Below are positions 4,404 to 20,194 of a DNA stretch of 64,000 bases, piece after piece. The notes beneath the pieces are model-generated. The model searched no databases and had not been told where the DNA came from. It saw only the letters and a list, made by a program, of their open reading frames with translations. Origin of the DNA: Thermococcus sp. P6 (GTDB lineage: Archaea; Methanobacteriota_B; Thermococci; Thermococcales; Thermococcaceae); contig NZ_CP015104.1 of assembly GCF_002214525.1 (NCBI RefSeq), forward strand, positions 1,054,001-1,118,000. The letters are read 5' to 3'. The translations under genes and the position numbers were made by a program. Positions within the stretch are counted from its first letter, which is position 1. Each line of letters starts with the position of its first letter.

Positions 4404-4997
4404 ATGGACCTAAAGCTGTGGGAACCGTTGATTGATTTCGCAAGGAAGAGGAGCCTCTGGATTGTGTCCTTCTGTACGGGGTGCGGTGGTATAGAGCTGC
4501 CACCGCTCATGACCTCCAGATACGATCTGGAGCGCTTCGGAATGATGCCGAACCCCTCCCCGAGGATGGGTGACCTGTTCCTCATAACCGGTTACGTCAC
4601 CCCGAAGACGCTCAAGAGGATCATCATAACCTACGAGATGCAACCCGATCCAAAGTACGTTATGGGCTTCGGTTCGTGCACCATCAACGGAGGCGTCTAC
4701 TGGGACTCCCCCAACTCAATAAAGCGCCTCGATAAATACATCCCGGTGGACGTTTACATAGCCGGCTGCATGCCGAGGCCCGAGTCGATAATGCACGGTA
4801 TCAGCAAGATGATGGAGCTTATAGAAACCGGCAGGGCGGATGGCTGGAAGAGGTACAGGGAGAACTACGATTACTACCGGGAGAATCAGGACAGACTCCT
4901 TGGAGAAGGCTGGCGTGAGAAGACCGCGAAGAGATGGATCCCGTGGTTGATGGACGAGGTCAGAAAGGCCGAAAAGGAGCGTGAGAGGGATGACTGA
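4404..4997 (+). CDS. mbxJ: MBS subunit J (NuoB family, proximal 4Fe-4S)
   Basis: This 197-residue protein is of the NuoB/small-hydrogenase-subunit family and carries the proximal iron-sulfur cluster next to the active site. The cluster ligands are visible as Cys24 and Cys27 (FCTGCGGIE), Cys92 (GSCTINGG) and Cys122 (AGCMPRP). The C-terminal 50 residues are highly charged and probably contact the other peripheral subunits. A GAGGTGATGTGAG leader precedes the ATG, and the stop overlaps the next gene. Confidence 0.93.
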   Translation: MDLKLWEPLIDFARKRSLWIVSFCTGCGGIELPPLMTSRYDLERFGMMPNPSPRMGDLFLITGYVTPKTLKRIIITYEMQPDPKYVMGFGSCTINGGVYWDSPNSIKRLDKYIPVDVYIAGCMPRPESIMHGISKMMELIETGRADGWKRYRENYDYYRENQDRLLGEGWREKTAKRWIPWLMDEVRKAEKERERDD

Positions 4998-5505
4998 CTA
5001 CGAGAGGCTCGTTTCAGAGATAACTGAAAAGGCCCCCTACGCGGAAGGAAAGGTCCGGAGGGAGAGGAGGATAGAGTTCAGGGTTCCCGCGGACAGGGTG
5101 AGGGAGTTCCTCGAACTGCTTAAGGATAAGGCCTTTGAGCTCCTGCTCCAGATCACGGCCGTTGACTGGCCCGACAGGGGAGAGATCGAGCTCATCTATC
5201 AGGTCTTCAGCATAACCCACGGAACGCACACCTTCGTAAGAACTTCCATACCGAGGGAGGATGCGGTTATATCAACCGTCAGGGACGTCTATCCCGCTGC
5301 CGAGACCTACGAGAGAGAAGTTCACGACTTCTTCCAGGTGGTCTTCGAGGGGAACCCGAAGATCGAGATGCCATGGATACTGGAGGACATAGACAAGGAA
5401 CAGGGGCTATCCTACAGGAAGGACTTTGACCTTCTCGGCTACGTGAAGAGGAAGTACGGGACACTGGACAGGTACGATGAGGATAAGGACTACTACGTTA
5501 TCTGA
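4990..5505 (+). CDS. mbxK: MBS subunit K (NuoC family)
   Basis: This is a 171-residue NuoC/30-kDa-subunit homologue. The family signature is visible around residues 75-135: ITAVDWPDRGEIELIYQVFS, then ISTVRDVYPAAETYEREVHD and FGV-type motifs. I chose the ATG at 4990 (MTDYERLV), which overlaps the mbxJ stop, over an in-frame GTG slightly upstream. The protein has no cofactor ligands. It binds the L and J subunits in the peripheral arm. Confidence 0.9.
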   Translation: MTDYERLVSEITEKAPYAEGKVRRERRIEFRVPADRVREFLELLKDKAFELLLQITAVDWPDRGEIELIYQVFSITHGTHTFVRTSIPREDAVISTVRDVYPAAETYEREVHDFFQVVFEGNPKIEMPWILEDIDKEQGLSYRKDFDLLGYVKRKYGTLDRYDEDKDYYVI

Positions 5506-5515
5506 GGTGATGATG

Positions 5516-6691
5516 ATGGTCTCAGAGAGCGAGCTTATTAAGGAGGCAAGGGAGAACGGGATGGACCTTCTGCCGCTGGGTAAGGACACCTACGAGCTTC
5601 TATTCGGTCCCCAGCACATGGCAACCGAGAACTACAGCCTGATCCTCAAAATGGACGGTAATAGGGTCGCTAAAGCCATAGCAAACCCCGGCTTCCTCCA
5701 CAGGGGTTTCGAGAAACTGGCCGAGTACAGGCCGTGGCACACGAACATAGCCCTTCTCCTGAGGATCTGCGTTCCAGAGTCGGACGTACCCGAGAACATC
5801 TACTCCATGGCCGTTGAGGAGATACTCGGATGGGAGATTCCCGAGAGGGCCCAGTGGATAAGGACAACCGTCCTTGAGATGGCCAGAGTCTCAGCCTACC
5901 TGTTCTGGATCATGGGGATGTCCTTCAAGCTCGGTGTCTACACAGCAGGTCAGTGGGCCGTGGCCTACCGTGAGAGGCTCCTGGCCCTCTTCGAGCAGCT
6001 CACGGGGGCGAGGGTGTACCACATCTACACGGTCCCTGGAGGTGTCAGGCGGGACATCCCGGGCGATGCCTGGCTCCGCAGACTCGGGGATACCGTCGAA
6101 TACATAAAGGACAAACTGAAGGACTTCGATGAGATACTCTTCGAGAACTACATCTCCCACCGCAGGCTTGAGGGCATAGGCGTGATGGACAGGAAGTTCG
6201 CCCTCGAAGAGGGCGTCACCGGTCCCAACCTCCGCGCCACAGGTGTTCCCTACGACGTAAGGCGCGTCGATCCGTACCTCCTCTACCCGGAGCTCGACTT
6301 CGAGGTCCCCGTGCTCAGGGAGGGAGACGCCCTCGCGAGGTTCCTCGTGAGGAGATACGAGCTCGAACAGGACCTCTACATCCTCGAACAGCTTCTTGAT
6401 ATGGGGCCGCCGGATGGACCCCACATGGTCAGCGATCCGAGGCTAAAGAACCTGCCGAGGTTTAAGGTGCCCGAAGGGGACGCCTTCGCCCACGTCGAGA
6501 GTTCCAAGGGTGATTTTGGGGCATACGTGGTCAGCAACGGCAAGAACAAACCCTACAGGGTGCACGTCAGGGGACCGAGCATAGCCCACGGTATCAGGGT
6601 GATAGAGCAGCTTCTCGTCGGGGCGAGAATAGCCGACGTGCCCGTGATACTGACGAGTCTTGACAACTGCCCACCGGATATAGACAGGTGA
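5516..6691 (+). CDS. mbxL: MBS catalytic-arm subunit L (NuoD / large hydrogenase-like, degenerate NiFe site)
   Basis: This is a 391-residue homologue of the NuoD/[NiFe]-hydrogenase large subunit. The region HRGFEKLAEYRPW matches the family. At the two places where hydrogenases carry CxxC nickel ligands, this protein has RICVPES (Cys85, then Glu) and DNCPPD (Cys385, then Asp), so only the first cysteine of each pair remains. That is incompatible with a normal NiFe centre and agrees with the sulfane-reductase assignment. Three ATGs follow the RBS GAGGTGAT. I chose the last (MVSESELI), but 5510 and 5513 are possible. The gene overlaps mbxN as TGATG. Confidence 0.92.
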   Translation: MVSESELIKEARENGMDLLPLGKDTYELLFGPQHMATENYSLILKMDGNRVAKAIANPGFLHRGFEKLAEYRPWHTNIALLLRICVPESDVPENIYSMAVEEILGWEIPERAQWIRTTVLEMARVSAYLFWIMGMSFKLGVYTAGQWAVAYRERLLALFEQLTGARVYHIYTVPGGVRRDIPGDAWLRRLGDTVEYIKDKLKDFDEILFENYISHRRLEGIGVMDRKFALEEGVTGPNLRATGVPYDVRRVDPYLLYPELDFEVPVLREGDALARFLVRRYELEQDLYILEQLLDMGPPDGPHMVSDPRLKNLPRFKVPEGDAFAHVESSKGDFGAYVVSNGKNKPYRVHVRGPSIAHGIRVIEQLLVGARIADVPVILTSLDNCPPDIDR

Positions 6692-7383
6692 TGAGGATGG
6701 AAGTCGATTTTAAAATAGCCCCAGAGAAACGGATCCGGAAGAAGCCCTCCTACGTCAAGCCGTGGATGGGTTTGAAGTACCTCTTCAAGAAGCCGGTCAC
6801 GATAAAGATACCCTACGAGAAGACAGAGGTGGCAAAAAGGTACCGCGGTGTCCACACGCTCGACTGGAAGAAGTGCGTCGGCTGCAACTTCTGCGGTCAG
6901 ATATGCCCGGCGAGGGCCATAGAGATGACCTGGATCGAGAAGGACGGCAAGATGGAGAAGAGACCCCACCCGAAGATAGACTACGGGAGGTGCACCTTCT
7001 GCCAGTTCTGCGTTGACGTGTGCCCCACCGGAGCCCTCGGCTTCATCGAGACCTTCGTTATAACCACCACGGGGAACGAGGAAGAGCTCCAGCTCTACGA
7101 CTGGGTGCCCATCCATCCGGACGAGTTCAGGAAGTATCAGGACGAGTACGGCGACTACCTCTTCCCTGTTGAGAAGATAGAGTTCGATAAGGAGAGCCGG
7201 GAGGTAACCTACCACCTCAGGGACGGCTCGATCTTCAAGTTCAAGATACTGGGCTACGGCATAAGGCCGCCGAAGAGACCAACTCCGAAGAGGCCAACTC
7301 CGGCCAAACCCGCGGCAAAGGAGGAAAAGAAAGCCTCCAAGCCAGCGGATGGAAAGGCTCCGGCAGAGGAAGAGAAGAAGTGA
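6691..7383 (+). CDS. mbxN: MBS subunit N (NuoI family, two 4Fe-4S clusters)
   Basis: This NuoI-type ferredoxin-like subunit passes electrons from ferredoxin to the J/L site. Two classical 4Fe-4S motifs are present: CVGCNFCGQICP around residue 66 and CTFCQFCVDVCP around residue 104. The last 45 residues are a low-complexity tail rich in Lys, Pro, Ala and Glu, including a repeated PKRPTP unit. I cannot assign a role to this tail. The ATG at 6691 overlaps the mbxL stop; ATG 6697 is an alternative start. It is the last gene of the operon, followed by a pyrimidine-rich run at about 7385-7402 that may end transcription. Confidence 0.92.
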   Translation: MRMEVDFKIAPEKRIRKKPSYVKPWMGLKYLFKKPVTIKIPYEKTEVAKRYRGVHTLDWKKCVGCNFCGQICPARAIEMTWIEKDGKMEKRPHPKIDYGRCTFCQFCVDVCPTGALGFIETFVITTTGNEEELQLYDWVPIHPDEFRKYQDEYGDYLFPVEKIEFDKESREVTYHLRDGSIFKFKILGYGIRPPKRPTPKRPTPAKPAAKEEKKASKPADGKAPAEEEKK

Positions 7384-7707
7384 TCCCTCCTTTCCTTTTC
7401 TTCATGGTGCGCCTTTTGACGCGTTTGAAAAGGGTCTCTACCCGGGCCTTGGGCTTTTTCAGGCTTTACTTGGAACCTTCCACATCCCCGGGAGCAGGGT
7501 ATTGACACCCATCAAACCTCAGATGCTCCTCTGGTTAGGAGCCCGAACCGAATTGCCAGAACACCGTACCTGTTTTCCTTCCGCTTATTCCGGTGGCTCT
7601 TCCTCAAAATGGCGGGGATTTGAGGATAATCACTATAAGTTGAAAACCCATCACGGGATGTCTCAAAAACCCAAACGTTTTTATAAAACCGTTCGGAAGT
7701 TTGAGAC
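7384..7707. other. Intergenic region between the MBS operon and the accessory island
   Basis: These 324 bases contain no gene I can support. They begin with a T-rich run likely to terminate the MBS transcript. At 7602-7608 and 7619-7625 is a short inverted repeat (CCTCAAA / TTTGAGG), and the stronger operator of the next gene lies at 7659-7708. A minus-strand reading around 7512-7580 encodes RYGVLAIRFGLLTRGASEV in a protein-like manner. It lacks a start, an RBS and a partner domain, so it may be a gene remnant at the island edge. Confidence 0.5.
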
Positions 7708-7708
7708 A
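7659..7708 (+). promoter_or_regulatory. Palindromic operator flanking a TATA box, probable autoregulation site
   Basis: TGTCTCAAA at 7659-7667 and its exact complement TTTGAGACA at 7700-7708 flank the TATA box TTTTTATAAAAC at about 7678-7689. The imperfect match extends inward to CAAACG / CGTTCG. The right arm ends on the A of the start codon at 7708, and the TATA-to-ATG distance of about 25 bases predicts a leaderless mRNA. A dimeric regulator bound here would cover both the TATA box and the transcription start. The HTH protein encoded immediately downstream is the obvious candidate. Confidence 0.75.
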
Positions 7709-8658
7709 TGACACTTACGAAGGCCGAGCTCAATGTGCTTTTAGAGATTGAGGAACCCATAACGTTAAGGGGGTTATCTGAGAAGCTCGACCTCTCAAAG
7801 AGTACGCTCTCATCGACCCTTCACTCCCTTGAGAGAAAGGGCCTCGTCGAGCTCGAAGGGAAGAAGCCGATAACAGTTAAGCCTGCGGAGAACAATGTAA
7901 TTGAGCTCCTGAGAAGGATTATCATGGAGTATCCTCACGTAAACGCCGCACCCATCCTCACAGGGAACCGCCTCAAAGTTCTCGCAGCCCTTGAAGTTGA
8001 AAACCCCCAGCCCCTCTGGCTCATCCAGTTAAGGACGGGAGTGAGCAGGGCGACGCTCCACAGGATTCTCAACGGGCTTATGGAAGCTCTCATCGTGGGA
8101 AAGAGAGACAGAGGCTACTTCCTGAGTGAGCGATTTGCTCCCTTCAAAGCCTTCGCTGACGAGTACTTTTACCTTCAGAACTCGATTAAAGCGAAGGAGT
8201 TTGACCCCGGCGCCTCACCTGTTTGGAGTGGTGTGGAGGAGCTGATACTCGCGACCGGGAACTTCAAGGGGGAGAGTGTTGGCGGCTTTCAGCTCACCGG
8301 ACTCGCCCGCTTCTCCGACTTTGGCCTTCCACTCATCTCGTCAGGGATTTACCATTATTACTGGCCTTCGAGAGGATTGAGCATTGAGGAGGTCGCTGTG
8401 CACACCTTGACGGTCGGAAGGGATGCAAGGGAGCTGCTTTACACCATCGTTCTCCTTAAGGGTAAAGATTTTGATGAACGCAAACTCAGGAGGCTCTCCG
8501 CCAAGTTTGGTGTTTCCTCCACCGTAGAGGAACTGCTCGAATATCTTAAGGGTATGGATAAACCGTATCCCTTCCCGTCAAGGGAGGAAGTCGAGGAGCT
8601 CTGCAGGCAATATTTTGGGGGGTGTAAGAATGATAACAAGGGACAGACTGATCCGTGA
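7708..8658 (+). CDS. Two-wHTH regulator, putative antitoxin of an AbiE-like pair
   Basis: This is a 316-residue protein with two winged-helix segments: residues about 5-55 (LRGLSEKLDLSKSTLSSTLHSL) and about 85-130 (QLRTGVSRATLHRILNGLME). The C-terminal part from about 150 is not recognised. It ends inside the next gene with a 29-base overlap. An HTH protein translationally coupled to a nucleotidyltransferase is the arrangement of type IV (AbiEi/AbiEii-like) toxin-antitoxin and HTH-MNT modules, in which the HTH protein represses its own promoter. The upstream palindrome fits that. The antitoxin role is inferred from context, and a plain regulator is possible. Confidence 0.65.
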   Translation: MTLTKAELNVLLEIEEPITLRGLSEKLDLSKSTLSSTLHSLERKGLVELEGKKPITVKPAENNVIELLRRIIMEYPHVNAAPILTGNRLKVLAALEVENPQPLWLIQLRTGVSRATLHRILNGLMEALIVGKRDRGYFLSERFAPFKAFADEYFYLQNSIKAKEFDPGASPVWSGVEELILATGNFKGESVGGFQLTGLARFSDFGLPLISSGIYHYYWPSRGLSIEEVAVHTLTVGRDARELLYTIVLLKGKDFDERKLRRLSAKFGVSSTVEELLEYLKGMDKPYPFPSREEVEELCRQYFGGCKNDNKGQTDP

Positions 8659-9358
8659 GTTTGCCCTGCTTGATGAGAAGGCTTGGCTCATGGGTTCAGA
8701 GGAGATCCGTGTTTACCTCATCGGAGGCGGGAACCTCGCTTTGAGAGGCATAAAACCGGCAACTGCGGATGTTGACGTAATAGTTGAGGATTACAGGAGT
8801 TTGAAAGCCCTTGATTCCATCCTTACAGATCCATCTCCAGAGCTGAGGACGAGCGGTGGAATCGTGGTTTACCTGAAGGTCTTTGGACATGAGTATGAGG
8901 AAAAACTTGGCGCTGATTCGGTTTATCAAAAGATTGACCCAGAAACGGGCAACTTTAACCTTGACGTTTTCGTAAAGCGCGTCATGAGAGGTATCCAACT
9001 GACCGAGGGGATAAAAAGTCGGTCCCTTGTGTCCGAGGAGTTTCAGGAGCTGAAACGGTTAAGGGTTTATCTCGTTTCCCTTGAGGACATCTTTTTGTTC
9101 AAGGGCGTTACATCGCCTGGCCGTTCAAAGGACGTTGATGATATCCTGCGGATCCTCGAAGCCGGGGTTGACTTTAATGTGATCCTCGACGAGATCAAAG
9201 CTCAGAGGAGGGTAATCGAATCTGAAAGATCTGGACGCCTTGCGGCTGTTTTCCTTGAAAAGATGGAAGGTGTTCGGGAAATTCTAAGGGGAAGGGGTCT
9301 GAGGAGTCTTGGGCTGGATAATTTCATTGATTCTCTTGAGGAATTGTTATCCGGATAA
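8630..9358 (+). CDS. Nucleotidyltransferase-fold protein, putative AbiEii-like toxin
   Basis: This protein has 242 residues if it starts at ATG 8630, which follows the strong RBS GGGGGGTG at 8617-8624; an in-frame TTG lies at 8615. The nucleotidyltransferase signature is visible near residues 29-50: LIGGGNLALRG, then a DVDVIV pair of metal-binding aspartates, with a third acidic residue in NLDVF. A later motif, SLEDIFLFKGVTSPGRSKDVDDI, resembles the K...R..D segment of AbiEii/MenA-type toxins. The partner is the overlapping HTH gene. I infer a tRNA- or protein-modifying growth-inhibiting enzyme. A plain DUF6036-type nucleotidyltransferase annotation would also be correct. Confidence 0.7.
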   Translation: MITRDRLIREFALLDEKAWLMGSEEIRVYLIGGGNLALRGIKPATADVDVIVEDYRSLKALDSILTDPSPELRTSGGIVVYLKVFGHEYEEKLGADSVYQKIDPETGNFNLDVFVKRVMRGIQLTEGIKSRSLVSEEFQELKRLRVYLVSLEDIFLFKGVTSPGRSKDVDDILRILEAGVDFNVILDEIKAQRRVIESERSGRLAAVFLEKMEGVREILRGRGLRSLGLDNFIDSLEELLSG

Positions 9359-9436
9359 TTGCCCCCGGCAAATTTAATAACCCTGAAGTTAGTATTTCTC
9401 TTAGGGGTTGAAAATTCATCGCAAGGGTGAATAAGG

Positions 9437-12400
9437 ATGGAGCTCGAGAGGAGAATTGAAAATATTCTAAAGGAGCTCACTCCGGAGACGAAACCGGAAG
9501 AGGCAATAAGGATTTTCAGGGACCTTTTTAAGGAAGCATGGGGGTTCGCATACGCGGACGAAACCATAAACCTCCAGCAGATTGAGGATTCAACGGTCGG
9601 GGAACTCACCCGGCTGCTCAAGGTCATAGGGAGGAGCAAGCCCCCGGCAGGGGAGAGCTTCCACGTCTTCTATGCTAAAAGCCCGAAGAAGGGCGGGGAC
9701 ACCGTAAGGTACAGGCAGAGGCTGGTAAGGTATCTAATCAACATCACCGATTCGATCGATCTGGAGTTTGCAAACTTCCTCGTTATCGTTGATTACTTCG
9801 GATACTGGAAGCTCCTCGTCCCGGTGTACAGAAAGGAAGTCGAAAGAACCAGAATCAACGTATATACCATCGACCCTGCTGCAGGGAAATTCCGGACGCT
9901 GGTCAAGAACATGGCGGAAGTTGGGAGGGCCATCCGGGAAAAGAAAAGACTCACGGCGAGCGATATAAAGGAGATAATCGATGAGCACATGCAGGTCAGG
10001 CCCCTGACGGAAGAGTTCTTCCGGGACTACAGGAGGTACTACTACAGGCTCAAGGATGAGATAAAGAGGCTTTACGGAAAAGAACTGGAGGAAGCCTATA
10101 GGGGTGATCTCAAAAAGGAGATCTTCGTCGAGAGGGCAACCAAAACCTTTGCCCACACCTTCCTAAACAGGTTGATGTTCGTTTACTTCCTCCAGAAAAA
10201 GGGGTGGATCGTTGAAAAAGGGACCCTCAGAAGGGATCTCAGGGAGAGGGTGGACGTTAAGAACTTCGTGAGATGGCTTTACGAAAACTACAGGGAGCAC
10301 GGCGGGGAGTTCTACAGGGACTACCTCAGGGTTCTCTTTCTCCACGCTATGAACGGGCCCAGAGGAGTTACGCCCGCAGGGACAACGAGGAGATAAAAAG
10401 GGTCCCGTCTGAGGACGTCAGGGACGTCTTCTTCTACGGCGTTCCCTACTTCAACGGCGGCCTTTTTGCCCGTGTTAAGCTCGAGAACGTTGATCTGGAC
10501 GGTATAATCTCCTCCCTTCCGGAGGATCTCGTGAAAGAGATTGTCTTCGAGTTCTTTGAGGCCTACAACTTCACTGTAACAGAGGAGACGCCCTACGAGG
10601 TTGAGGTTGCCGTTGACCCGGCGATGCTCGGTAAGATCTACGAATCGCTCATAGCCGAGGAGGAGAAGGCCCTTGAGGAGGAAGAGAGGAGGGTCTCCGG
10701 GATCTTCTACACGCCGAGGGCCGAAGTGGACTTCATGTGCAGGATGGCGGTTTACGAGTACCTCCGGAGAAACCTCGAGGTGGACGATAGGCTCCTCAGG
10801 GAGTTCGTCTTTAAGCCGCTTCACGAGTGGGAGCCGAGAGCTTTACCCCGGGAGCTTGTTACGGCCCTTGAAGACGTTAAGATAGTTGACCCGGCAGCCG
10901 GAAGCGGGGCCTTTCTCGTCGGGATGTACCACCTTTTAACGGAGCTCTACGAGAAGGCCAACCTTTCGGTTGACTACGACAGGAAGCTCGAGATAATCAG
11001 GGAGAACATCTACGGGGTTGACGTGAAGGAGTGGGCCATAAGGGTTGCGAAGCTGAGGCTCTGGCTGGCGCTCATCGAGGATGAGGAGAGGATCCCCAAC
11101 GAACCGATTCTGCCGAACCTCGAGACGAAGCTGAAGGTCGGCGACTCCCTCGCACCGCCCCACTTTATCCTCAAGATTGACAGCCGGAAGAAGGTGGTCG
11201 AGATTCCGCTGGCCAGATTCAGGGAGAGCCTCAAGCTCCTCTGGGCGAAGGGGGGTATGGGTGAGGCCATGGTGGCCTACAGGGAGCTCGTGAGAAAGTA
11301 CTACATGGGTGAGAGAATAGACGGCAGACCCGTTACCTTCGAGGACATCGAGAGGGCCAGATGGGGCGTTCTTCAGGAGTTCCTTGAGGGGGCACTCGAG
11401 GAACTCAAAGCCCGGGAAAGGAAGGATATTAACCTGCTCCTCGAGGCCGTCAGGAACGAAAACCTCTCGGCCCTTGAGAAGCCTCCCTTCATCTGGGAGC
11501 TGGACTTTCCGGACGTGATGCTCGAGAAGAGGGGCTTTGACATCGTTATAGCGAACCCTCCCTACGTAAGGCAGGAGAGGATATACCCTGAACAGTACGA
11601 TCTGGCGGAGTTCGGGATGCTCGGCAAAAGGGAGCAGGAAAAACTTAGAAAGGATTACAAGAATAAGATAATCAGTCACATGGAGACCCTGATAAGGGAG
11701 AAGTTCGGGCACGAGATGAAGCTTCCGAAGAGGAGCGACCTCTATGTGTACTTCTTCATACAGGGCGTCAACCTTCTGAATCCAAAGGGTTCGCTGATTT
11801 TCATCACCTCCAACTCGTGGCTGGACGTTGACTTCGGAAAGGCCCTGCAGGAGTTCTTCCTCAGGTTCACCCATCTGAGGGCGGTTATTGACTACACGAG
11901 GAGGAGCTTCGAGCAGGCGGACGTTAACACCGTCATCACGGTTCTGACGAGGAAACCAAAGGGGCTCTTCAACACCGTTGGGACGGAGTGCGTGAACTTC
12001 GTCCTTCTGAAGAGGGACTTCGGGGAGCTTGGACTTAATGTTATCGACAGACTGCTCGAGTGCTACGCGGGAAAGGTCGATGGAGTTGAGGTCTTCGGGG
12101 GGAAGGTTTACAGTTACGAGGACGACGAGCTGAGGGTGAGGAGCGTTAGGGCCGTGGAGTTAGCGAAGATGGGAGGCCTGAGCATCGGGAAGATGAACCA
12201 GATCCTGAGGGCCTACAACGTCTCGGGCGAGTACGAGGGGATGAAGTGGGGTGGAATACTCATCAGGGCTCCGGGGATATTCTACGTGATCCTCCGGAAG
12301 GGAAAGGGAAAACTGGTGAGGCTCGGAGATATCGCCGAGGTCAGATTCGGCATAAAAACGGGAGCGAACGAGTTCTTCTACCTTGAGCCGATTAAGAACC

Positions 12401-13290
12401 CTGTGGAGTGGCCGGTCTGTCAGGTTTGCGGAAGGGTTCATAAACCGGACGAGGGGTTAATTGCCGTGAGGAACAAGGCTGGATGGGAGGGCTACATCGA
12501 GGAGGAGTTCTTGAGGCCTGTCATAGTAAGTCCCCGTGAAATCAAAAAAGCTTTGGTTGATGTTTACGGATTAAAGATGAGGGCATTAATCTGTAACGAA
12601 CCTTTAGATTCGTTAAAGGATAAACTAAAGGTTCATGTTCTGAATTACATTAGATGGGGGGAACACATGGGTTATCCCGAGCGAAGAACTCTTAAGAGTA
12701 GAAAACCTTGGTACAAATTAGTCCCACATGATACTCCAGATGTTTTATGGCCAATGATACACAACGATCGGCTAATTGTTGGGATGTTACGAAACAAAGA
12801 TATTGTAGTTGATCATAATCTCTTTGAAATAAAAGCCAATAAAAACGAATCGCCTCTTGTTCTTTTTGTGTCTTTGTTTTCGACTTATCAGGCACTCATT
12901 AGAGAACTTCTCGGGCGTTCAAATCTCGGAGAGGGGGCATTAAAAACTGAGGGCATTGACATTAAAAAACTCATTGTCTTCAAAAAAGAAGCTTTAGCTG
13001 GATCTATGGATCAGTTAAACCAGATTGTCAGAAAATTAGGGGATTATAAAATCAAATCCATCTTCGAAGAACTCGGCCTGCCGAAGCCCAACCGCGACCT
13101 GAGCAACATCAACCCCGATGATGTGTCCCTCGATAGGATCATGCCGGACAGAAGGGAGCTCGACAGGGTCGTCTTCGAGGCCCTCGGGTTAACGGAGGAG
13201 GAGCAGCTGGAGGTTTACAGGGCCGTTGTCGAACTCGTGAAGGCGAGGCTGGTGAAGGCGAGGACGTTCAAGAAGAAAAAGCGGAAATGA
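9437..13290 (+). pseudogene. Type IIG / PglX-like adenine DNA methyltransferase, frameshifted
   Basis: Two reading frames together encode one protein of about 1280 residues. The first starts at ATG 9437 behind AAGGATG and makes about 307 sensible residues to HAMNG, then runs into nonsense and stops at 10396. The second frame takes over sensibly at about 10360 (QRSYARRDNEEIKRVP). Loss of one base in GGGCCC at 10355-10360 explains the break. The second part carries SAM motif I (DPAAGSG, about 10888) and the N6-adenine catalytic motif NPPY at 11554-11565. The C-terminal half should hold the target recognition domain, where bases about 12540-13070 are strikingly AT-rich. I saw no convincing PD-(D/E)XK nuclease in the N-terminal part. 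Real decay, an assembly error or recoding cannot be separated here. Confidence 0.8.
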
Positions 13291-13351
13291 TGCCGGACCA
13301 CTCCCAAGATTGGATGCGGCCGATAGATTAGATGGAGGGCCTCCAGAAGGC

Positions 13352-13942
13352 TTAGAGTTCCCTAATAACCTCCTCAATACACTCGATTACGGTATTTCTC
13401 TGAGTTCTTAAAATATATTTTAAGGTCCCATTGTTGGAATCTTCAAGTAACCGCTCTATTGATTCGTACTTTTTCAAAGATTTAACAGCCTGTTCTTTCT
13501 TGGAGAAATCCACAGGCTCCTCTATGCGTCCCTGTTTGATCTTCGTATTGTTGCTAAGGTCGTAGTCGGCGGCGTTTCTGAGTCCCCTTAAATACATAAT
13601 GGAGTTGTGCGCCTGTCTCAGCTTGAGGTCCTTGACCCTATGTTTTAATTTTTCTAAAAACAGCGCCACGGCCTTATGCGATCTCGGTCCGTCAAGTTCA
13701 TTCAAAAAATCTTCAAGGCTTCCTCTGGAACGGGTATTCGTGGGATAACTGTTTAGCTCGACTTTTAGAACTTTTCTGAGTTGCAAAAAGGCAGAATAGT
13801 AATATCTTCCAACAATGGTCCTATTAACGGCATCGGATGGGGGGAGCTCTGGATCATTACGCGTTTCCGATGGGGTTTTATCAGACAGACGCAGCAGGTA
13901 GTCTCCAACATGCTTAAACCCCTTTGGATCAAAGCCGGGCAT
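13352..13942 (-). CDS. Unknown protein, possibly HEPN-like, third gene of an opposite-strand trio
   Basis: This is a 196-residue, mostly helical, charged protein. Residues about 40-62 (RTIVGRYYYSAFLQLRKVL) and 118-128 (RGLRNAADYDL) resemble the two conserved helices of HEPN-superfamily proteins, including an R..ADYD motif. The classical RxxxxH nuclease motif is not evident, so I hold the assignment loosely. The start ATG follows GGTGGGG, and the gene lies 12 bases behind its upstream neighbour, so the three minus-strand genes probably form one transcript. Base composition is clearly more AT-rich than the housekeeping genes. It ends convergently with the methyltransferase. Confidence 0.6.
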   Translation of the reverse strand: MPGFDPKGFKHVGDYLLRLSDKTPSETRNDPELPPSDAVNRTIVGRYYYSAFLQLRKVLKVELNSYPTNTRSRGSLEDFLNELDGPRSHKAVALFLEKLKHRVKDLKLRQAHNSIMYLRGLRNAADYDLSNNTKIKQGRIEEPVDFSKKEQAVKSLKKYESIERLLEDSNNGTLKYILRTQRNTVIECIEEVIREL

Positions 13943-13954
13943 GTTCCCCCACCG

Positions 13955-14446
13955 TCATTCAAAAAACGAGTATACCAGTATCCTGTTCGATATATCGGGA
14001 TCAGCAGTGAGGATTTTGTATTCTAACTCCTCTGAGAGGTCGACGACGTTTTCGGCGTCAGCAGAAAATCTGACGATGAGAATCACGTGGGGGCTGAAGC
14101 CTTCTTCCGGAGCGCCTCCGGTAATTTTCACATATTTGATCTCAGGCATCTTCAAAAACTTGGGAAGAAGGTTAGTTAAGTACTGATAGGTATTCAGGTA
14201 TTGATTAATGTGTCTCCGGTCCGATACAAGTAATTCAATAAGAGCTTCGTCATCGATTTTAAGTTTTCCCGAATACTTCTTCTCCAGTTCTTTTAATCTG
14301 AATAGGGGCATTAGTATCTTTAAGAGCCGTTTAAGTTCTTCATTAATTCTGGCATAACTTTCCGTAGAGGCATCCTCCAAAAGAACAACATCACGATCTT
14401 TTTCAAAGAATAACCACTGGTCTGCCACCTTAGCTGACATCGCCAT
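13955..14446 (-). CDS. Unknown 163-residue protein, middle gene of the trio
   Basis: I do not recognise this protein. The N-terminal half is helical and charged (SYARINEELKRLLKILMPLF, then RLKELEKKY). The C-terminal half looks like beta strands with SPHVILIVRFSADAENVVDL. There is no signal peptide or membrane segment. The ATG lies inside the end of the upstream gene with a 17-base overlap, behind GAGGTG, so the two are translationally coupled. AT-rich composition and location between a methyltransferase and a nuclease-helicase suggest an accessory or regulatory part of the defence locus. Confidence 0.6.
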   Translation of the reverse strand: MAMSAKVADQWLFFEKDRDVVLLEDASTESYARINEELKRLLKILMPLFRLKELEKKYSGKLKIDDEALIELLVSDRRHINQYLNTYQYLTNLLPKFLKMPEIKYVKITGGAPEEGFSPHVILIVRFSADAENVVDLSEELEYKILTADPDISNRILVYSFFE

Positions 14447-14999
14447 CTTTGAGCACCTCGTTTAATATTTCCCGAAACTTCTTCAGGTCGTTTTTTGTTA
14501 TTATGAAATTCACAGTATTCGGTTTTTTGGATCGCATGTGCTCAATTTTCAGGAGGTAATACTCCAAAGGCTCATCGATGTTTAGTGTCGCTCTATACAG
14601 GTTGATCCCGTCAACGACTGGAATTGAATATTCCCTTTTAAGTTTGGCCTTTGTTCTCATATCCGGAACGTTAAATTTTTCAAACACTTTTTTTTCAAAT
14701 TCATTTTCGGGCTGTTTTTCATTAAATATGAGTTCGCCCAGCGTTCCAAGTATCCTCTTTGTAGCGAGATTAACGTACTTTTTCTCCTGATCTGGGGGTA
14801 TTCCTAACTCCCTCAGGTATGGGCGTATCTCGCCAGTTGAAACCGAAAGCCCGACCTCCCCCTCACCACTCACGATAGCCTTTAAATTCGTAAGTGACAG
14901 GATCTTTTCTATAACCCCGCTTACCTTGGATTCGTCAGTGGGAGTTTCCTCGTATTCAACAAGTTTTTGGAGAAGTTTAATGAGGTCACTGTCTGCCAT
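14430..14999 (-). CDS. Unknown 189-residue protein, first gene of the trio
   Basis: The family is not recognised. I take ATG 14999 (MADSDLIKLLQ), preceded by GGGTGTGAG, over an in-frame start 15 bases upstream. The N-terminus is helical and acidic. Residues about 125-150 (YSIPVVDGINLYRATLNID) look like strands, and the C-terminus is a charged helix. It overlaps the next gene. A TATA-like TTTTTAAGAG lies about 30-45 bases upstream on the minus strand (15031-15043), giving a very short leader. Local GC in one 60-base line (14461-14520) is about 28 percent by hand count, well below the rest of the window. Confidence 0.6.
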   Translation of the reverse strand: MADSDLIKLLQKLVEYEETPTDESKVSGVIEKILSLTNLKAIVSGEGEVGLSVSTGEIRPYLRELGIPPDQEKKYVNLATKRILGTLGELIFNEKQPENEFEKKVFEKFNVPDMRTKAKLKREYSIPVVDGINLYRATLNIDEPLEYYLLKIEHMRSKKPNTVNFIITKNDLKKFREILNEVLKDGDVS

Positions 15000-15074
15000 A
15001 GAACTCACACCCACACACTTTTACATAACTACTCTTAAAAACATTTCGACAATTCCAGATAACGAATCCACTGT

Positions 15075-15118
15075 ACACCAAACCCTTAAATAAATGAAGC
15101 TCCACTATTAGATGGTGT
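15075..15118. promoter_or_regulatory. Inverted hexamers flanking a TATA-like element
   Basis: ACACCA at 15075-15080 and TGGTGT at 15113-15118 flank the TATA-like CTTAAATAAAT at about 15085-15095. The layout repeats that of the operator at 7659-7708: complementary half-sites on each side of a TATA box. It lies in the 246-base divergent gap between the opposite-strand trio and the nuclease-helicase gene. It could be a regulator site, but hexamer arms are short and chance is possible. Confidence 0.3.
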
Positions 15119-15245
15119 TCACTTTGTTCAGCACGCGTAACGGCATATTAAGCGTCGAGGTGCTTTGAGCGAAGGACGATCCGGATGGAGGGAGTAAGAA
15201 ATTTTATTAGAGTCCTATCAAATGTAATGATGGAAGGTGATTCTT

Positions 15246-18200
15246 ATGTCCGCGATCGGCCTTCTCAATAAATACGGTCTCGTTGATAACCAGAGGGTAA
15301 AGCTCCTCGATGTTCTAAGGGAAGTTTTAACGTCCGGAAACTACAGGAAGGTAGACGTTGCGGTCGGCTTTCTCTTCGTGAGCGGATTGAAGGAGATTCA
15401 GGGAGAGCTTGATGAATTTTTCTCACGGGGAGGGAAGATGAGGATAATGATCGGAAACCAGACGAACAGGGAAACCTACGAACAGCTCAGCATGGCTTAC
15501 CACTCCCTCGAAACTTTAAGGAAGCTCAAGGAACGGAACCGGTGGGCCGAAACCACTCCGGGGGAGCAGGTTGAGGATCTGGAGAAAAACGTCAACTTCA
15601 TGGAGCAGAACCGGGAAAACGAGGAGTTTTTGGATAGGCTTATCGGATGGCTGGAAAGCGGGAGCATTGAGATCCGGGTTTACACGAAGGAGTTCATGCA
15701 CGCCAAGGCCTACCTCTTTTATCCGGAAAGTGAGTCCATCTCCCCGGTCGGCCTCGTCGGTTCGAGCAACTTCAGCCTCGCCGGACTTTACGGGAACACC
15801 GAGCTGAACGCCGGGCTTTTCTCGGTTCATTTTGAGAGTCTGAGGGAATGGTACGAGGCGCTGTGGGAGGAGGCCGAACCCTTCAGTCCCCTTCTCATAG
15901 ACGTTATCAAAAGGGGCTGGCCCGGTCAGAAGCCGGGGAACTTCCCCTCCCCCTACGAGGTTTTCATAAGGGGTCTTTACGAGCTCTACAGGGAGGTTGT
16001 GGACAGGGATTCCGGCTTCCTCGTGAGGAACCTTCACGACGTTCTTTACGACTTTCAGATGGACGCCGTCAGGAGGGGCATATCCATTGTAAATAAGTAC
16101 GGTGGAGTTCTGATAAGCGATGTCGTCGGGCTGGGGAAGAGCTACATTGGTCTCGCCATTCTGGAACACTTCTCCCTGCTGGATCTGCTCAACGGAAGGT
16201 CGAAGGGAGTGGCCGTAATCGCTCCCCCCGAGCTCGTTGGCTACTGGCGGGAACTCCTCGGGACATATAACGTTGAGGGAAGGGTTTTCTCCGCCGGGTT
16301 GCTTCCGAGAAAAGAAACTTCCGGAGAAAAGTACGGGGAGATGGAGAATTACATAAGGAATCAGGCAAACACCGTTCTGGTAGATGAATCCCATCACTAC
16401 GCAAACCCCTCGACCAAGTCCTACAAAAACCTTCAGGAGCTCCTGATCGGAAAGAGGGTGATCTTACTTACGGCGACCCCATACAGGAGGCAGTACCGTG
16501 ACATCATAAATCAGATCCGCCTTTTCAGGCCCGAGAGGAGGCATCCCTTCCCGATAACACCCCAGACGTGGGATGACCTCATCAGGGCGATTGAAAAGGG
16601 GAACGTGGATCCTTCCTACGTCCTCAGGGAGATCATGGTGAGGAGAACCAGACACGACATCTTAAGGCTCTACGGAGGAAAGGAGGGCTGCATTAAGGCG
16701 GGGAAGAAAAGGCTCTGCTTCCCAGACAGGAAGCTGAAGAGCATTGAGTACGGAATATCCGAGGTCTATCCGCTGGAGAAGGTCCCTCCGGAGCTTCTGG
16801 ACGAGATCTCAAGGGGTTCGAACATCGAGCCGGTTGACATCTACACCCTCTTTCTTGCCGGCATAAACTCCATGAAGTACGCGAGGTTCGCGCTCTATGA
16901 CTACGTAAAACCGCAGTTCAGGGATAAGTCCCCTTACGTAGACCTTTCCGTCGGGAGAAACCTGAGAGGGCTGGAAAGGATCCTTTACCTCAAAAGGCTG
17001 GAGAGTTCGTGGTACTCGATGTATCAGACTCTCAGGAGGGACATCATCAAAACCGAGAACTTCCTGAGATTCGTAAAGCACGGGTTCATTCCTGCGGGGG
17101 ATGAGTTTGATGAGGTCCTGCTCGGCGGTCTAAATAAAGAACCGCACGTTCTGGACGATGGGGAAATAATGGATTTCATTGAAAAATACAGGAAAACAAA
17201 AGAGCCGGAATACAAGAAGGGCGCTTTTAACTTAAATAGACTTATCTCGGATCTGGAACACGATCTGAGGAAATTGAAAGCCATGGAAGAAGTATTAAGA
17301 CCCCTTAAGGAGGGCCTTGAAGAGAATCCGGAGAAGGACCCAAAGCTGTCAAAGCTGGCCTCGTTGATAGATGAGCTGATGCAACCGCGGAGGAAGATAC
17401 TCATCTTCAGTGAATTCGAGGAGACCGTCCGGTGGATCTACAAAGGACTGGAAAGGCTCGGCTACACCCGGAATTACAGGATAGAAATGGTGAGCTCCAG
17501 TACGAAGGGAATAGCGGATAAAGTCAGACGCTTTGCACCCCGGTCGAACAACTACGAGACCGAGGATGAGATCGACGTACTGATATCCACGGACGTCCTC
17601 AGTGAGGGACTCAACCTGCAGGACGCGAACGTAGTCATAAACTACGACCTGCACTGGACGCCGATAAAGCTCATCCAGAGAATAGGCAGAGTTGACAGGA
17701 TCGGAACCGGGCATGATGAGATACTCGTTTACAATTTCTTCCCGGAAAAAGGACTGGAGGAGAACCTTGGCCTCCTTGAAAAGGTCAGGAGAAGGATAAC
17801 CGAGTTCAACAACGCGCTGGGTGCCGATGGCAAAATCCTTGAGGAGAGCGAGGAATGGAACCCTTCAGCCCTCGAAGCGATATATGGGGGAAACATTGAA
17901 GAACTTGAGAAGGGTGTCGAAACCCTTACGGTAACCACCCTTGCGGAGAAGCTCGTGAGGGAGTTCAGGGAGGGACACAAAAACCGGTTTGAGGAGATAA
18001 TAAAGAGACACTCCATGAGAAGCGTGGTTAGGTATCCGGGCTCCGACTATTATGCATTTTTCGTTTGCAGCGATGGAATAATGGCCCAGAACTTCATATA
18101 CCGGAAGAAGGGGGATAAATGGATATCCGAAAACATGCCACTTGAGAAACTTCTGGACCTCACGGGATTAACGGAGAAATCCCGGCCATTCAATGGATTC

Positions 18201-18665
18201 AAGGATATGGGAATATACTATGAAGCTGCGGAGAGGGCATTGGACGAGTTCAGGGAGCTCCGCACTATAAAAACAAGTACGTTAACCTTCAAGAAACGCC
18301 GCAGGAATCCCGAGAAAATTAAACGAATCCTGAAAAAACTCAAAGCCGCAAAACTCAAAGCGAAGACGGATTCCGATAGGTACTACCTAAGCCAGCTCCT
18401 TGATCTTGTTAGATGGGGGTATGCAAACCATGAGCTCTTCGCCAGGGCGCTCAGAGAGATCAATCCCAGCATGGCATCGGACAGGGTGGTCAGGGCCTGT
18501 GAGGCATTGATAGTAAAATATCAGATCTCATCATGGAAACAGCAGGTAGAAGCCCGGAGAAGGGAACTGGGCGAGAAAGGCATTAAGCCCCATATCGTAT
18601 CCGGCATCCTATTCGTTCCCACCCTGCCGGATTACCCCGAAGCCGGCGCGGGAACCAAACCCTGA
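15246..18665 (+). CDS. PLD nuclease-SNF2 helicase fusion, putative restriction/defence effector
   Basis: This 1139-residue protein starts at ATG 15246 behind GGAAGGTGA; an in-frame GTG at 15237 is less likely. The N-terminal 200 residues form a phospholipase-D-type nuclease domain with HAK at residue 152 and GSSNFS at 172. A superfamily-2 helicase follows: Walker A GLGKS near 295, DESHH at 380, TATPYRR at 409, and the motif VI-like RIGRVDRIG near 812. The last 300 residues are unassigned. This fusion recurs beside large adenine methyltransferases in prokaryotic defence islands. The role here is inferred as ATP-driven recognition or cutting of foreign DNA. A TATA box (AATTTTATTA) lies near 15200. 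Confidence 0.85.
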   Translation: MSAIGLLNKYGLVDNQRVKLLDVLREVLTSGNYRKVDVAVGFLFVSGLKEIQGELDEFFSRGGKMRIMIGNQTNRETYEQLSMAYHSLETLRKLKERNRWAETTPGEQVEDLEKNVNFMEQNRENEEFLDRLIGWLESGSIEIRVYTKEFMHAKAYLFYPESESISPVGLVGSSNFSLAGLYGNTELNAGLFSVHFESLREWYEALWEEAEPFSPLLIDVIKRGWPGQKPGNFPSPYEVFIRGLYELYREVVDRDSGFLVRNLHDVLYDFQMDAVRRGISIVNKYGGVLISDVVGLGKSYIGLAILEHFSLLDLLNGRSKGVAVIAPPELVGYWRELLGTYNVEGRVFSAGLLPRKETSGEKYGEMENYIRNQANTVLVDESHHYANPSTKSYKNLQELLIGKRVILLTATPYRRQYRDIINQIRLFRPERRHPFPITPQTWDDLIRAIEKGNVDPSYVLREIMVRRTRHDILRLYGGKEGCIKAGKKRLCFPDRKLKSIEYGISEVYPLEKVPPELLDEISRGSNIEPVDIYTLFLAGINSMKYARFALYDYVKPQFRDKSPYVDLSVGRNLRGLERILYLKRLESSWYSMYQTLRRDIIKTENFLRFVKHGFIPAGDEFDEVLLGGLNKEPHVLDDGEIMDFIEKYRKTKEPEYKKGAFNLNRLISDLEHDLRKLKAMEEVLRPLKEGLEENPEKDPKLSKLASLIDELMQPRRKILIFSEFEETVRWIYKGLERLGYTRNYRIEMVSSSTKGIADKVRRFAPRSNNYETEDEIDVLISTDVLSEGLNLQDANVVINYDLHWTPIKLIQRIGRVDRIGTGHDEILVYNFFPEKGLEENLGLLEKVRRRITEFNNALGADGKILEESEEWNPSALEAIYGGNIEELEKGVETLTVTTLAEKLVREFREGHKNRFEEIIKRHSMRSVVRYPGSDYYAFFVCSDGIMAQNFIYRKKGDKWISENMPLEKLLDLTGLTEKSRPFNGFKDMGIYYEAAERALDEFRELRTIKTSTLTFKKRRRNPEKIKRILKKLKAAKLKAKTDSDRYYLSQLLDLVRWGYANHELFARALREINPSMASDRVVRACEALIVKYQISSWKQQVEARRRELGEKGIKPHIVSGILFVPTLPDYPEAGAGTKP

Positions 18666-18692
18666 ACCGGGACGCCGGTATTCAGGAGGAGT

Positions 18693-18848
18693 ATGCTGAA
18701 GGAGTTCGCCCATCCCGGAGGGTACTTCCTCGACGTTTACCTCATAAGCGATTCAATCCGGGACGGCTTAGAGGGAAAAGCCCGGGAGCTGGAGGACGGG
18801 ATTATGGTAAAGCTCCGGGTGGCAGGATTAAAGCCCGGCTCAGGGTGA
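18693..18848 (+). CDS. Short ORF of 51 residues, unknown
   Basis: ATG 18693 is preceded by a very good ribosome binding site, AGGAGG, five bases upstream. The product begins MLKEFAHPGGYFLDVYLISD and ends KLRVAGLKPGSG. It has no signal peptide or membrane helix. The stop overlaps the stop of ccdA on the other strand. The sequence is protein-like but short, so it may be either a small gene at the end of the helicase transcript or the surviving end of a longer one. Confidence 0.4.
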   Translation: MLKEFAHPGGYFLDVYLISDSIRDGLEGKARELEDGIMVKLRVAGLKPGSG

Positions 18849-19574
18849 GGATCCCGTAAGCACCCAGAGCCCCACGGCTATGAGGAGCATCCCGGCCATA
18901 ACGGAGAGCTCCCTCCCGTGCCGCACCATCATCCGGGAGAAGTTCTTGCTCTCCACGAGGCTCCCCATGACGAGGAGTATGACGAACAGGGGAAGGACGA
19001 AGATCAGGTTGTAGAGGCCGAGGAGGAGAAGGGCGAGCCTCCTTCCGGCTCCGGAGATCAGTATGGCGTAGACGAGGTAGCTTCCGGCGGAGCAGGGAAG
19101 AAGGGTCGTCGAGACCGTAATCCCGAGGGTGAGGGCCCCGATGATGGTTGCGTCACGGCCGAACAGCATCCGCCGGATCCTCCCCTTATCGCCTATGCGG
19201 GATCTCTCAACGAGACCTGTTACCACCGTGTAGACACCAAAGGCTATGGCCACAATCCCGGCGACCCAGACGGGGATGAGGCCGGCGAAGTAGAGGAGGC
19301 CGACCCCGAGGAGGTAGTAGGAAACGTAAACCGCGCCGATGAAGGTTGTCCCTATGAGGTAGAGCCTCTTCTTCGATACCTCCCTGACGGAGATCGCTAT
19401 GAGGAGCATCGTGTAGACGACGAAGGTGCAGGGGTTTATGGAGTCGCTCATCGCGAGGGCGAGGAACTCCGGCAGAAAGTTCACCATGCCGAGGAGGTAA
19501 AGTGCGAGCGTGCTTATCCCGAAAGAGGCGAGCAGAATGACAACCAGTCCCTTTACCTCACCCTTCATGTGCAC
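18840..19574 (-). CDS. ccdA: CcdA/DsbD-type transmembrane thiol-disulfide carrier
   Basis: This is a 244-residue membrane protein with about six hydrophobic helices. It has the two single-cysteine motifs that define the CcdA/DsbD membrane domain: DSINPCT near residue 46 and TTLLPCSAGSY near 159. Such proteins move reducing equivalents from cytoplasmic thioredoxin across the membrane. The gene sits 56 bases behind a secreted thioredoxin-like protein on the same strand, which is the likely partner receiving the electrons. Confidence 0.88.
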   Translation of the reverse strand: MHMKGEVKGLVVILLASFGISTLALYLLGMVNFLPEFLALAMSDSINPCTFVVYTMLLIAISVREVSKKRLYLIGTTFIGAVYVSYYLLGVGLLYFAGLIPVWVAGIVAIAFGVYTVVTGLVERSRIGDKGRIRRMLFGRDATIIGALTLGITVSTTLLPCSAGSYLVYAILISGAGRRLALLLLGLYNLIFVLPLFVILLVMGSLVESKNFSRMMVRHGRELSVMAGMLLIAVGLWVLTGSSP

Positions 19575-19630
19575 TTCTTCCCGGGGACTCTTTTTGTGGA
19601 TTTCGAAAACGGAAAGTTGAAAACGAAACG

Positions 19631-20194
19631 TTAACGCCTTTTCCTGAGAAAGACCGGAAGAAGGGCGAGTGCCACCATCGTACCCGGCCCGCAGGTGCCA
19701 CCGTTGCCGGGGGTTTTTGTCCCATCCTCCCCGGGCAGCCTGTGCTCGACGTATATCTCCTGAAGCTTCCGGGTTACCGTTTCGTTCTTTATTATGTAAG
19801 CCTTGCCCCCCACGAAGAGCAGCAGGCCGTTGTTCTCAAGGGCCGTCCTTACGATATCGGGTGTGGCCGAGACGTTGTATTCTCCCTCGACTATCGCCAC
19901 GAGTTTCCCGTCGTAGGCTATCCCTATGGCCGGAACCCCGGCTATTCCCGTGTAGTTGTACTGGGCCGAGAAGAGCCGTTCGTTTTCATCGTTGTTGAGC
20001 AGTTCGTAGTAGGTCAGGCTGTTCTCGCCGTAGATTTCGGGTATCTCCTCCTTCATGCGCTTACAGTGGGGACAGGTCGCCATGCCGTACATGTAAAAGT
20101 GAATCCTGTTTGGATCGACCCCGGCTTCAGCGAGGGCGTAGGAAACCGTCGAGAGCATCAGCAGGGCCGTGAACAACAGAGCCATCCTCTTCAT
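19631..20194 (-). CDS. Secreted thioredoxin/glutaredoxin-like protein with CGP-CTERM anchor
   Basis: This 187-residue protein starts with a signal peptide (MKRMALLFTALLMLSTVSYALA). A thioredoxin-fold domain follows with an active-site TCPHCKRMK near residue 37 and a cis-proline context AGVPAIGI. The C-terminus is GTCGPGTMVALALLPVFLRKRR: a CGP tripeptide, a short hydrophobic segment and a basic end, that is, the CGP-CTERM sorting tail known from Thermococcaceae. It is therefore probably exported and anchored to the outer face, where it can exchange disulfides and be recharged by the adjacent CcdA. Confidence 0.88.
   Translation of the reverse strand: MKRMALLFTALLMLSTVSYALAEAGVDPNRIHFYMYGMATCPHCKRMKEEIPEIYGENSLTYYELLNNDENERLFSAQYNYTGIAGVPAIGIAYDGKLVAIVEGEYNVSATPDIVRTALENNGLLLFVGGKAYIIKNETVTRKLQEIYVEHRLPGEDGTKTPGNGGTCGPGTMVALALLPVFLRKRR

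What the first reader, a model, noticed from the sequence alone, without database searches (positions are those of the whole stretch)
13352..14999. Opposite-strand AT-rich trio inside the defence island
Three coupled genes (189, 163 and 196 residues) of unknown family run against the methyltransferase and nuclease-helicase. The last has two helices reminiscent of HEPN proteins. One 60-base line here is about 28 percent GC. Such enclosed, tightly coupled genes may be an effector-inhibitor set or a later insertion.
Basis: inference. Interest (0 to 1): 0.6.

Follow-up and report, generated by a model that had tools for sequence, protein, structure and literature searches.

The report
Archaeal three-gene HEPN RNase toxin cassette
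Three small genes lodged inside a DNA-defence locus of a Thermococcus archaeon look like a self-contained toxin cassette: an RNA-cutting HEPN enzyme with the same active-site residues as the killer protein of a bacterial retron, but with no reverse transcriptase, led by two partner proteins, one of which is predicted to fold like the COMMD proteins of animal cells.

Summary
Genes A (189 aa), B (163) and C (196) form a tightly coupled, AT-rich minus-strand operon (13352-14999) between a type IIG-like methyltransferase and a PLD-SNF2 helicase. C is a HEPN protein of the retron type IX family. Across 25 relatives at about 20% identity only R41, Y48, Y49, H89, L118, R122, D126 and Y127 are invariant. 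These match Y40-42 and R122 of retron-Kva2, and probably its H64, which are essential for Kva2 defence. No reverse transcriptase occurs in any of 11 carrier genomes, so this is an RT-free use of that effector.

A-B-C recurs in six Thermococcales restriction loci (one has lost A), in contexts without restriction genes, and in a Methanocaldococcaceae genome. Gene relationships show that it moved independently of its flanks. The slot it fills holds AbiE, nucleotidyltransferase-HEPN or PIN genes in other genomes. It therefore looks like a swappable toxin-antitoxin or abortive-infection cassette: C effector, B probable inhibitor, A probable sensor or scaffold. A's model best matches COMMD proteins, but confidence is low there, sequence tests are inconclusive and the hallmark Trp is absent. 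Toxicity and antiviral function are untested.

The parts
14430..14999 (-). Gene A, 189 aa: helical N-terminal part plus beta-beta-beta-alpha C-terminal domain; predicted COMMD-like; first gene of the operon, proposed sensor or scaffold
   Evidence: AF2 model pLDDT 65; Foldseek top hits COMMD-like 9q6a and human COMMD, VIA Z 7.0-7.4; homologues G018, G093, G113, G108, G011, G107, G131
13955..14446 (-). Gene B, 163 aa: long helix plus alpha-beta-beta-alpha-beta C-terminal domain; directly upstream of the HEPN gene; proposed inhibitor (antitoxin-like)
   Evidence: AF2 model pLDDT 84; only weak fold matches, KH-like/RBM type; homologue in Methanocaldococcaceae, hhalign E 1e-18
13352..13942 (-). 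Gene C, 196 aa: HEPN RNase of the retron type IX family; proposed effector/toxin. Key residues Y47-49, H89, R122, D126, Y127
   Evidence: PADLOC HEPN_IX, PDB 36ht_I retron-Kva2 HEPN E 1.5e-5, invariant residues in 25 sequences
15000..15060 (-). Upstream region of A with an archaeal promoter-like CGAAATGTTTTTAAG
   Evidence: sequence inspection only; not tested
9437..13290 (+). Flanking type IIG-like adenine methyltransferase, in two frames (frameshift at about 10360); left edge of the cargo slot
15249..18665 (+). Flanking PLD nuclease-SNF2 helicase (PADLOC C3a139 'HKD+Snf2'); right edge of the cargo slot

Best explanation
A-B-C is a mobile, RT-free HEPN RNase cassette of the toxin-antitoxin/abortive-infection type. 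C is the effector: a homodimeric HEPN RNase whose active site is built from H89 and R122 of both subunits, with the YYY47-49 motif positioning the RNA (inferred from homology to retron-Kva2; the substrate is probably tRNA). B, made just before C by coupled translation, most likely binds C and keeps it silent. A, the first and most replaceable gene, most likely senses the trigger or scaffolds the A-B-C complex, so that infection or loss of the restriction locus releases C, which cuts RNA and stops growth. The cassette sits as interchangeable cargo between a type IIG-like MTase and a PLD-SNF2 helicase, where other genomes carry AbiE, nucleotidyltransferase-HEPN or PIN genes. Shown: operon structure, HEPN family and active-site conservation, absence of RT, recurrence as a unit, independent movement. 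Inferred: RNase activity, B as inhibitor, A as sensor, antiviral role.
For: C matches PADLOC HEPN_IX in all 10 members tested and retron-Kva2 HEPN (36ht_I, E 1.5e-5). In 25 diverged relatives the invariant residues are R41, Y48, Y49, H89, L118, R122, D126, Y127. Kva2 H64A, R122A and Y40-42A abolish defence, and Kva2 also lacks RphiXXXH (PMC13405049). No RT in 11 carrier genomes while controls ring. The trio or its B-C part occurs in 6 restriction loci, and A-B-C occurs outside them in G011, G107 and G131. A gene ends next to the HEPN start in 41 of 44 loci. Trio genes share one set of relationships that contradicts the helicase's. The slot holds AbiE, Polbeta-HEPN and PIN cargo elsewhere. G041 lost A and the N-terminus of B but keeps C, so A is not needed to survive C.
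Against: No toxicity, RNase, binding or antiviral data. H89-H64 equivalence rests on position and invariance, because the HMM put Kva2 H64 in an insert. B homology beyond the Thermococcus and Methanocaldococcus types is marginal, so 'constant B' is mainly positional. Near-universal HEPN loci of this family in Methanocaldococcaceae (12 of 14 genomes) could hint at a housekeeping role in that group.
Confidence: 0.62

Rival explanations
1. A selfish addiction cassette: C and B form a plain toxin-antitoxin pair that stabilises the restriction locus or the mobile element carrying it, with no antiviral trigger; A is an accessory regulator.
For: A two-gene upstream-gene/HEPN arrangement is common in Methanocaldococcaceae; mobile-element-like contexts in G011 and G024; AbiE and nucleotidyltransferase-HEPN genes occupy the same slot.
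Against: Three-gene form with a large extra protein maintained by purifying selection, and swaps of gene 1, suggest more than simple addiction. The two readings overlap.
Confidence: 0.22
2. The trio encodes extra subunits of the restriction system, acting with the methyltransferase and helicase on DNA.
For: Conserved position between the two genes in six Thermococcales loci.
Against: The eight other loci with these flanks that I read lack it; it occurs without the flanks in G011, G107 and G131; relationships discordant with the helicase; opposite strand; C is a HEPN of an RNase family.
Confidence: 0.07
3. A classical HEPN/MNT pair in which B is a degenerate minimal nucleotidyltransferase that modifies the HEPN tyrosine.
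For: B ends with a beta-beta-alpha-beta order resembling MNT, and C keeps an invariant DY.
Against: B has no GS-x-DxD motif and no NTase hit by sequence; fold search gave KH-like/RBM matches only; the same slot elsewhere holds a clear Polbeta-HEPN pair that looks different.
Confidence: 0.06

Closest known systems
Retron type IX (retron-Kva2) HEPN effector
   Same: HEPN family by profile; YYY motif and R122 align, conserved His; no RphiXXXH motif; encoded with small partner proteins
   Different: No reverse transcriptase, hence no msDNA-based sensing; partners are A and B instead of RT and the winged-helix protein; archaeal
HEPN/MNT (HepT-MntA) toxin-antitoxin; candidate PDC-M05
   Same: Small HEPN gene coupled to a small upstream partner; patchy distribution in archaea
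   Different: Partner lacks nucleotidyltransferase motifs; three genes; different HEPN motif layout
COMMD proteins of the Commander complex and bacterial COMMD-like MBK5214510 (PDB 9q6a)
   Same: Predicted helical N-terminal part plus beta-beta-beta-alpha C-terminal domain; top Foldseek and VIA matches
   Different: No tryptophan at all; Pfam COMM below cut-off; low model confidence; lies in a toxin-like operon
AbiE type IV TA cargo in the same locus
   Same: Occupies the same slot between methyltransferase and PLD-SNF2 helicase
   Different: Unrelated proteins; nucleotidyltransferase toxin
TIGR04255 - small protein - HEPN loci in Nitrospirota-phylum genomes (L064, L065)
   Same: Same gene order, with a HEPN of the same profile family at the end
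   Different: First gene is a TIGR04255 protein; B relation not established

Membership tests
HEPN superfamily, retron type IX-like branch | Significant profile similarity | tested here: met
   PADLOC HEPN_IX 1.8e-5 for C, best 9.8e-9 among relatives, 10 of 10; 36ht_I E 1.5e-5 with the 25-sequence profile
HEPN superfamily, retron type IX-like branch | Tyr triplet and Arg used by Kva2 (Y40-42, R122) | tested here: met
   Aligned directly with Kva2; Y48, Y49 and R122 invariant in 25 sequences
HEPN superfamily, retron type IX-like branch | Catalytic His (Kva2 H64) | tested here: inconclusive
   H89 invariant at a plausible position, but the HMM alignment leaves Kva2 H64 in an insert
Retron type IX system | Reverse transcriptase with msr-msd | tested here: not met
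   No PF00078 match in 11 carrier genomes; controls ring
Retron type IX system | Winged-helix partner protein | tested here: inconclusive
   Neither the A nor the B model shows a winged helix among its matches; absence from the lists is not proof
Canonical HEPN RNase motif | R(phi)XXXH | tested here: not met
   C has RNAADYD; most relatives also lack His there; L012 and L034 have DYH
HEPN/MNT toxin-antitoxin | MNT antitoxin with GS...DxD | tested here: not met
   Motif absent from B; no NTase family hit
COMMD/COMM domain | COMM fold | tested here: inconclusive
   Foldseek E 8.6e-5 and all top hits COMMD; VIA Z 7.4, rmsd 1.9 over 62 residues; that part of the model has pLDDT 44-64
COMMD/COMM domain | Strictly conserved COMM tryptophan (PMC10187114) | tested here: not met
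   No Trp in any of eight A homologues
COMMD/COMM domain | Pfam PF07258 above cut-off | tested here: not met
   Best 0.082 for one C-terminal segment; the best hit in genome G107 falls on A's C-terminus at E 0.25
Toxin-antitoxin / abortive infection module | Toxicity of the effector and neutralisation by a partner | not testable with these tools
   Needs expression experiments

The most novel reading that the evidence does not exclude
A is a true archaeal COMM-domain protein that scaffolds and controls a HEPN RNase alarm complex, so the COMMD family, held in 2023 to have arisen on the eukaryotic stem, has relatives, possibly its roots, in prokaryotic toxin/defence cassettes.
Probability: 0.3. 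Interest if true: 0.85.

Novelty: new variant of a known kind. Interest (0 to 1): 0.6.

Why it matters
It shows the type IX retron effector working without a retron, controlled by other partners, which makes the sensor-effector split directly testable. It reveals a cargo slot inside an archaeal restriction locus where toxin cassettes are exchanged. If A is COMMD-like, it offers a prokaryotic system in which the biochemical role of COMM rings could be studied.

Tried and rejected
Pfam, NCBIfam and PADLOC gave nothing usable for A or B. Profile searches of PDB sequences with A found nothing credible. The viral contig scan with C found no relative, and plasmids gave no match. No Rfam family at 7000-20000, so no known ncRNA partner. 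First genes of L036, L028 and L035 are not related to A by hhalign. B as one deep family: only Thermococcus and Methanocaldococcus long forms are firmly related; the rest is marginal. B fold: no match above Z 6.6, so no function read from it. Restriction-subunit and classical MNT readings rejected as above. I read the third gene of L073 as PIN-like by eye; Pfam did not support it. No paper found joining HEPN with TIGR04255 or with COMM domains.

Full report
OBSERVATION. The three minus-strand ORFs are present as described. In transcription order they are A (14999-14430, 189 aa), B (14446-13955, 163 aa) and C (13942-13352, 196 aa). A and B overlap by 17 bp, B and C are 12 bp apart, and both downstream starts follow GGTG-type sequences. 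The trio is 42.3% GC in a 54.9% GC window; only 2 of 1040 equal-length windows are as AT-rich, and GC3 is about 0.47 against 0.67-0.70 for the flanking genes. Relatives show dN/dS of 0.07-0.26, so these are real selected genes. The genome shares its genus with G041, whose 39854-base contig is that of Thermococcus sp. S013_22.

GENE C. Pfam recognises nothing above cut-off, but PADLOC HEPN_IX matches C (1.8e-5) and all ten relatives tested. A 25-sequence profile hits retron-Kva2 HEPN, PDB 36ht_I, at 1.5e-5 along most of its length. In that alignment Kva2 Y40-Y42 fall on our Y47-Y49, and Kva2 R122 (RGIVDYE) falls on our R122 (RNAADYD). Invariant residues of the family are R41, Y48, Y49, H89, L118, R122, D126 and Y127. 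In Kva2, H64 and R122 of both subunits form the active site, Y40-42 position RNA, mutants of each lose defence, and there is no RphiXXXH motif (PMC13405049). C is therefore very likely a working HEPN RNase. The H89-H64 match is positional. Eleven carrier genomes have no reverse transcriptase, so this is not a retron.

GENE B. An ORF ends within about 160 bases of the HEPN start in 41 of 44 loci (a few loci overlap each other). B's model (pLDDT 84) has long helices and an alpha-beta-beta-alpha-beta domain resembling KH-like and ring-building folds only weakly. Window-type B is firmly related to the B of a Methanocaldococcaceae trio (hhalign 1e-18), while other lineages' B proteins are only marginally related. 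I infer that B is the inhibitor, because B-C pairs exist alone and because G041 keeps C with a shortened B after losing A.

GENE A. The model (pLDDT 65) has a helical N-terminal part and a beta-beta-beta-alpha end. Foldseek's best matches are a bacterial COMMD-like protein (8.6e-5) and human COMMD proteins. VIA gives Z 7.0-7.4 with rmsd 1.7-1.9 over 62-64 residues for two COMM domains, against 5.0 or less for non-COMMD rows. Against this, that region has pLDDT 44-64, Pfam COMM is below threshold, and none of eight homologues has any Trp, whereas the COMM Trp is strictly conserved in eukaryotes and no prokaryotic homologues were reported in 2023 (PMC10187114). I call it COMMD-like, tentative. 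A also occurs with unrelated downstream genes in G137 (L073).

CONTEXT. The same flanks with trio genes occur in G018, G093, G108 and G113, and in G041 without A. The helicase is found in 18 Thermococcales genomes, and in eight further loci read with these flanks the slot lacks the trio; most hold AbiE pairs, Polbeta-HEPN pairs, PIN or OLD genes instead. A-B-C also occurs without the flanks in G011, G107 and Methanocaldococcaceae G131. G011 carries it near HerA-like and AbrB-like genes that resemble an integrated element (inference). For the helicase the window is closest to G113 (73%); for A, B and C the window is the outlier (41-52%) and G113 groups with the others (63-72%). The trio thus moved as a unit, independently of its flanks.

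MECHANISM. I propose a swappable, RT-free HEPN cassette: C effector, B inhibitor, A sensor or scaffold. Established here: operon, HEPN family, active-site conservation, RT absence, mobility as a unit. Inferred: RNase and tRNA target, inhibition by B, sensing by A, antiviral benefit. A plain addiction function is the main rival and overlaps with it.

NOVELTY. HEPN toxins and HEPN-containing retrons are known. An RT-free archaeal three-gene version with a COMMD-like first gene I did not find described in the papers available, which are only part of the literature.

Noticed in passing
window 10340-10400: The type IIG-like methyltransferase is split by a frameshift near 10360 (N-terminal frame 9437-10393, main frame 10276-13290), whereas relatives G018, G041 and G093 have one 1283-1324 aa ORF. 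Could be decay or a sequencing error.
   Followed up: partly
L098 (G009) 4838-8831: The N-terminal part of the same methyltransferase lies on the opposite strand from the rest, as if that segment were inverted; only short inverted repeats were found.
   Followed up: partly
L010 7987-8559, L011 8239-8973, L031 4348-5058, L033 8124-8870, L095 8180-8956, L099 10334-11071: An uncharacterised 190-258 aa helical protein recurs in the same cargo slot, with or without the trio; function unknown.
   Followed up: no
L073 (G137) 324-1974: A COMMD-like A gene is followed by a 141 aa gene and a 239 aa gene unrelated to HEPN; possibly another toxin pairing.
   Followed up: partly
window 7708-9358: A two-gene unit next to the restriction locus: an HTH regulator (HVO_2833 C-terminal family) overlapping a DUF6036 nucleotidyltransferase, resembling a type IV toxin-antitoxin pair.
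   Followed up: no
L064, L065: TIGR04255 protein, small protein and HEPN in one coupled row: TIGR04255 proteins of unknown function may be the sensor part of similar HEPN modules.
   Followed up: partly
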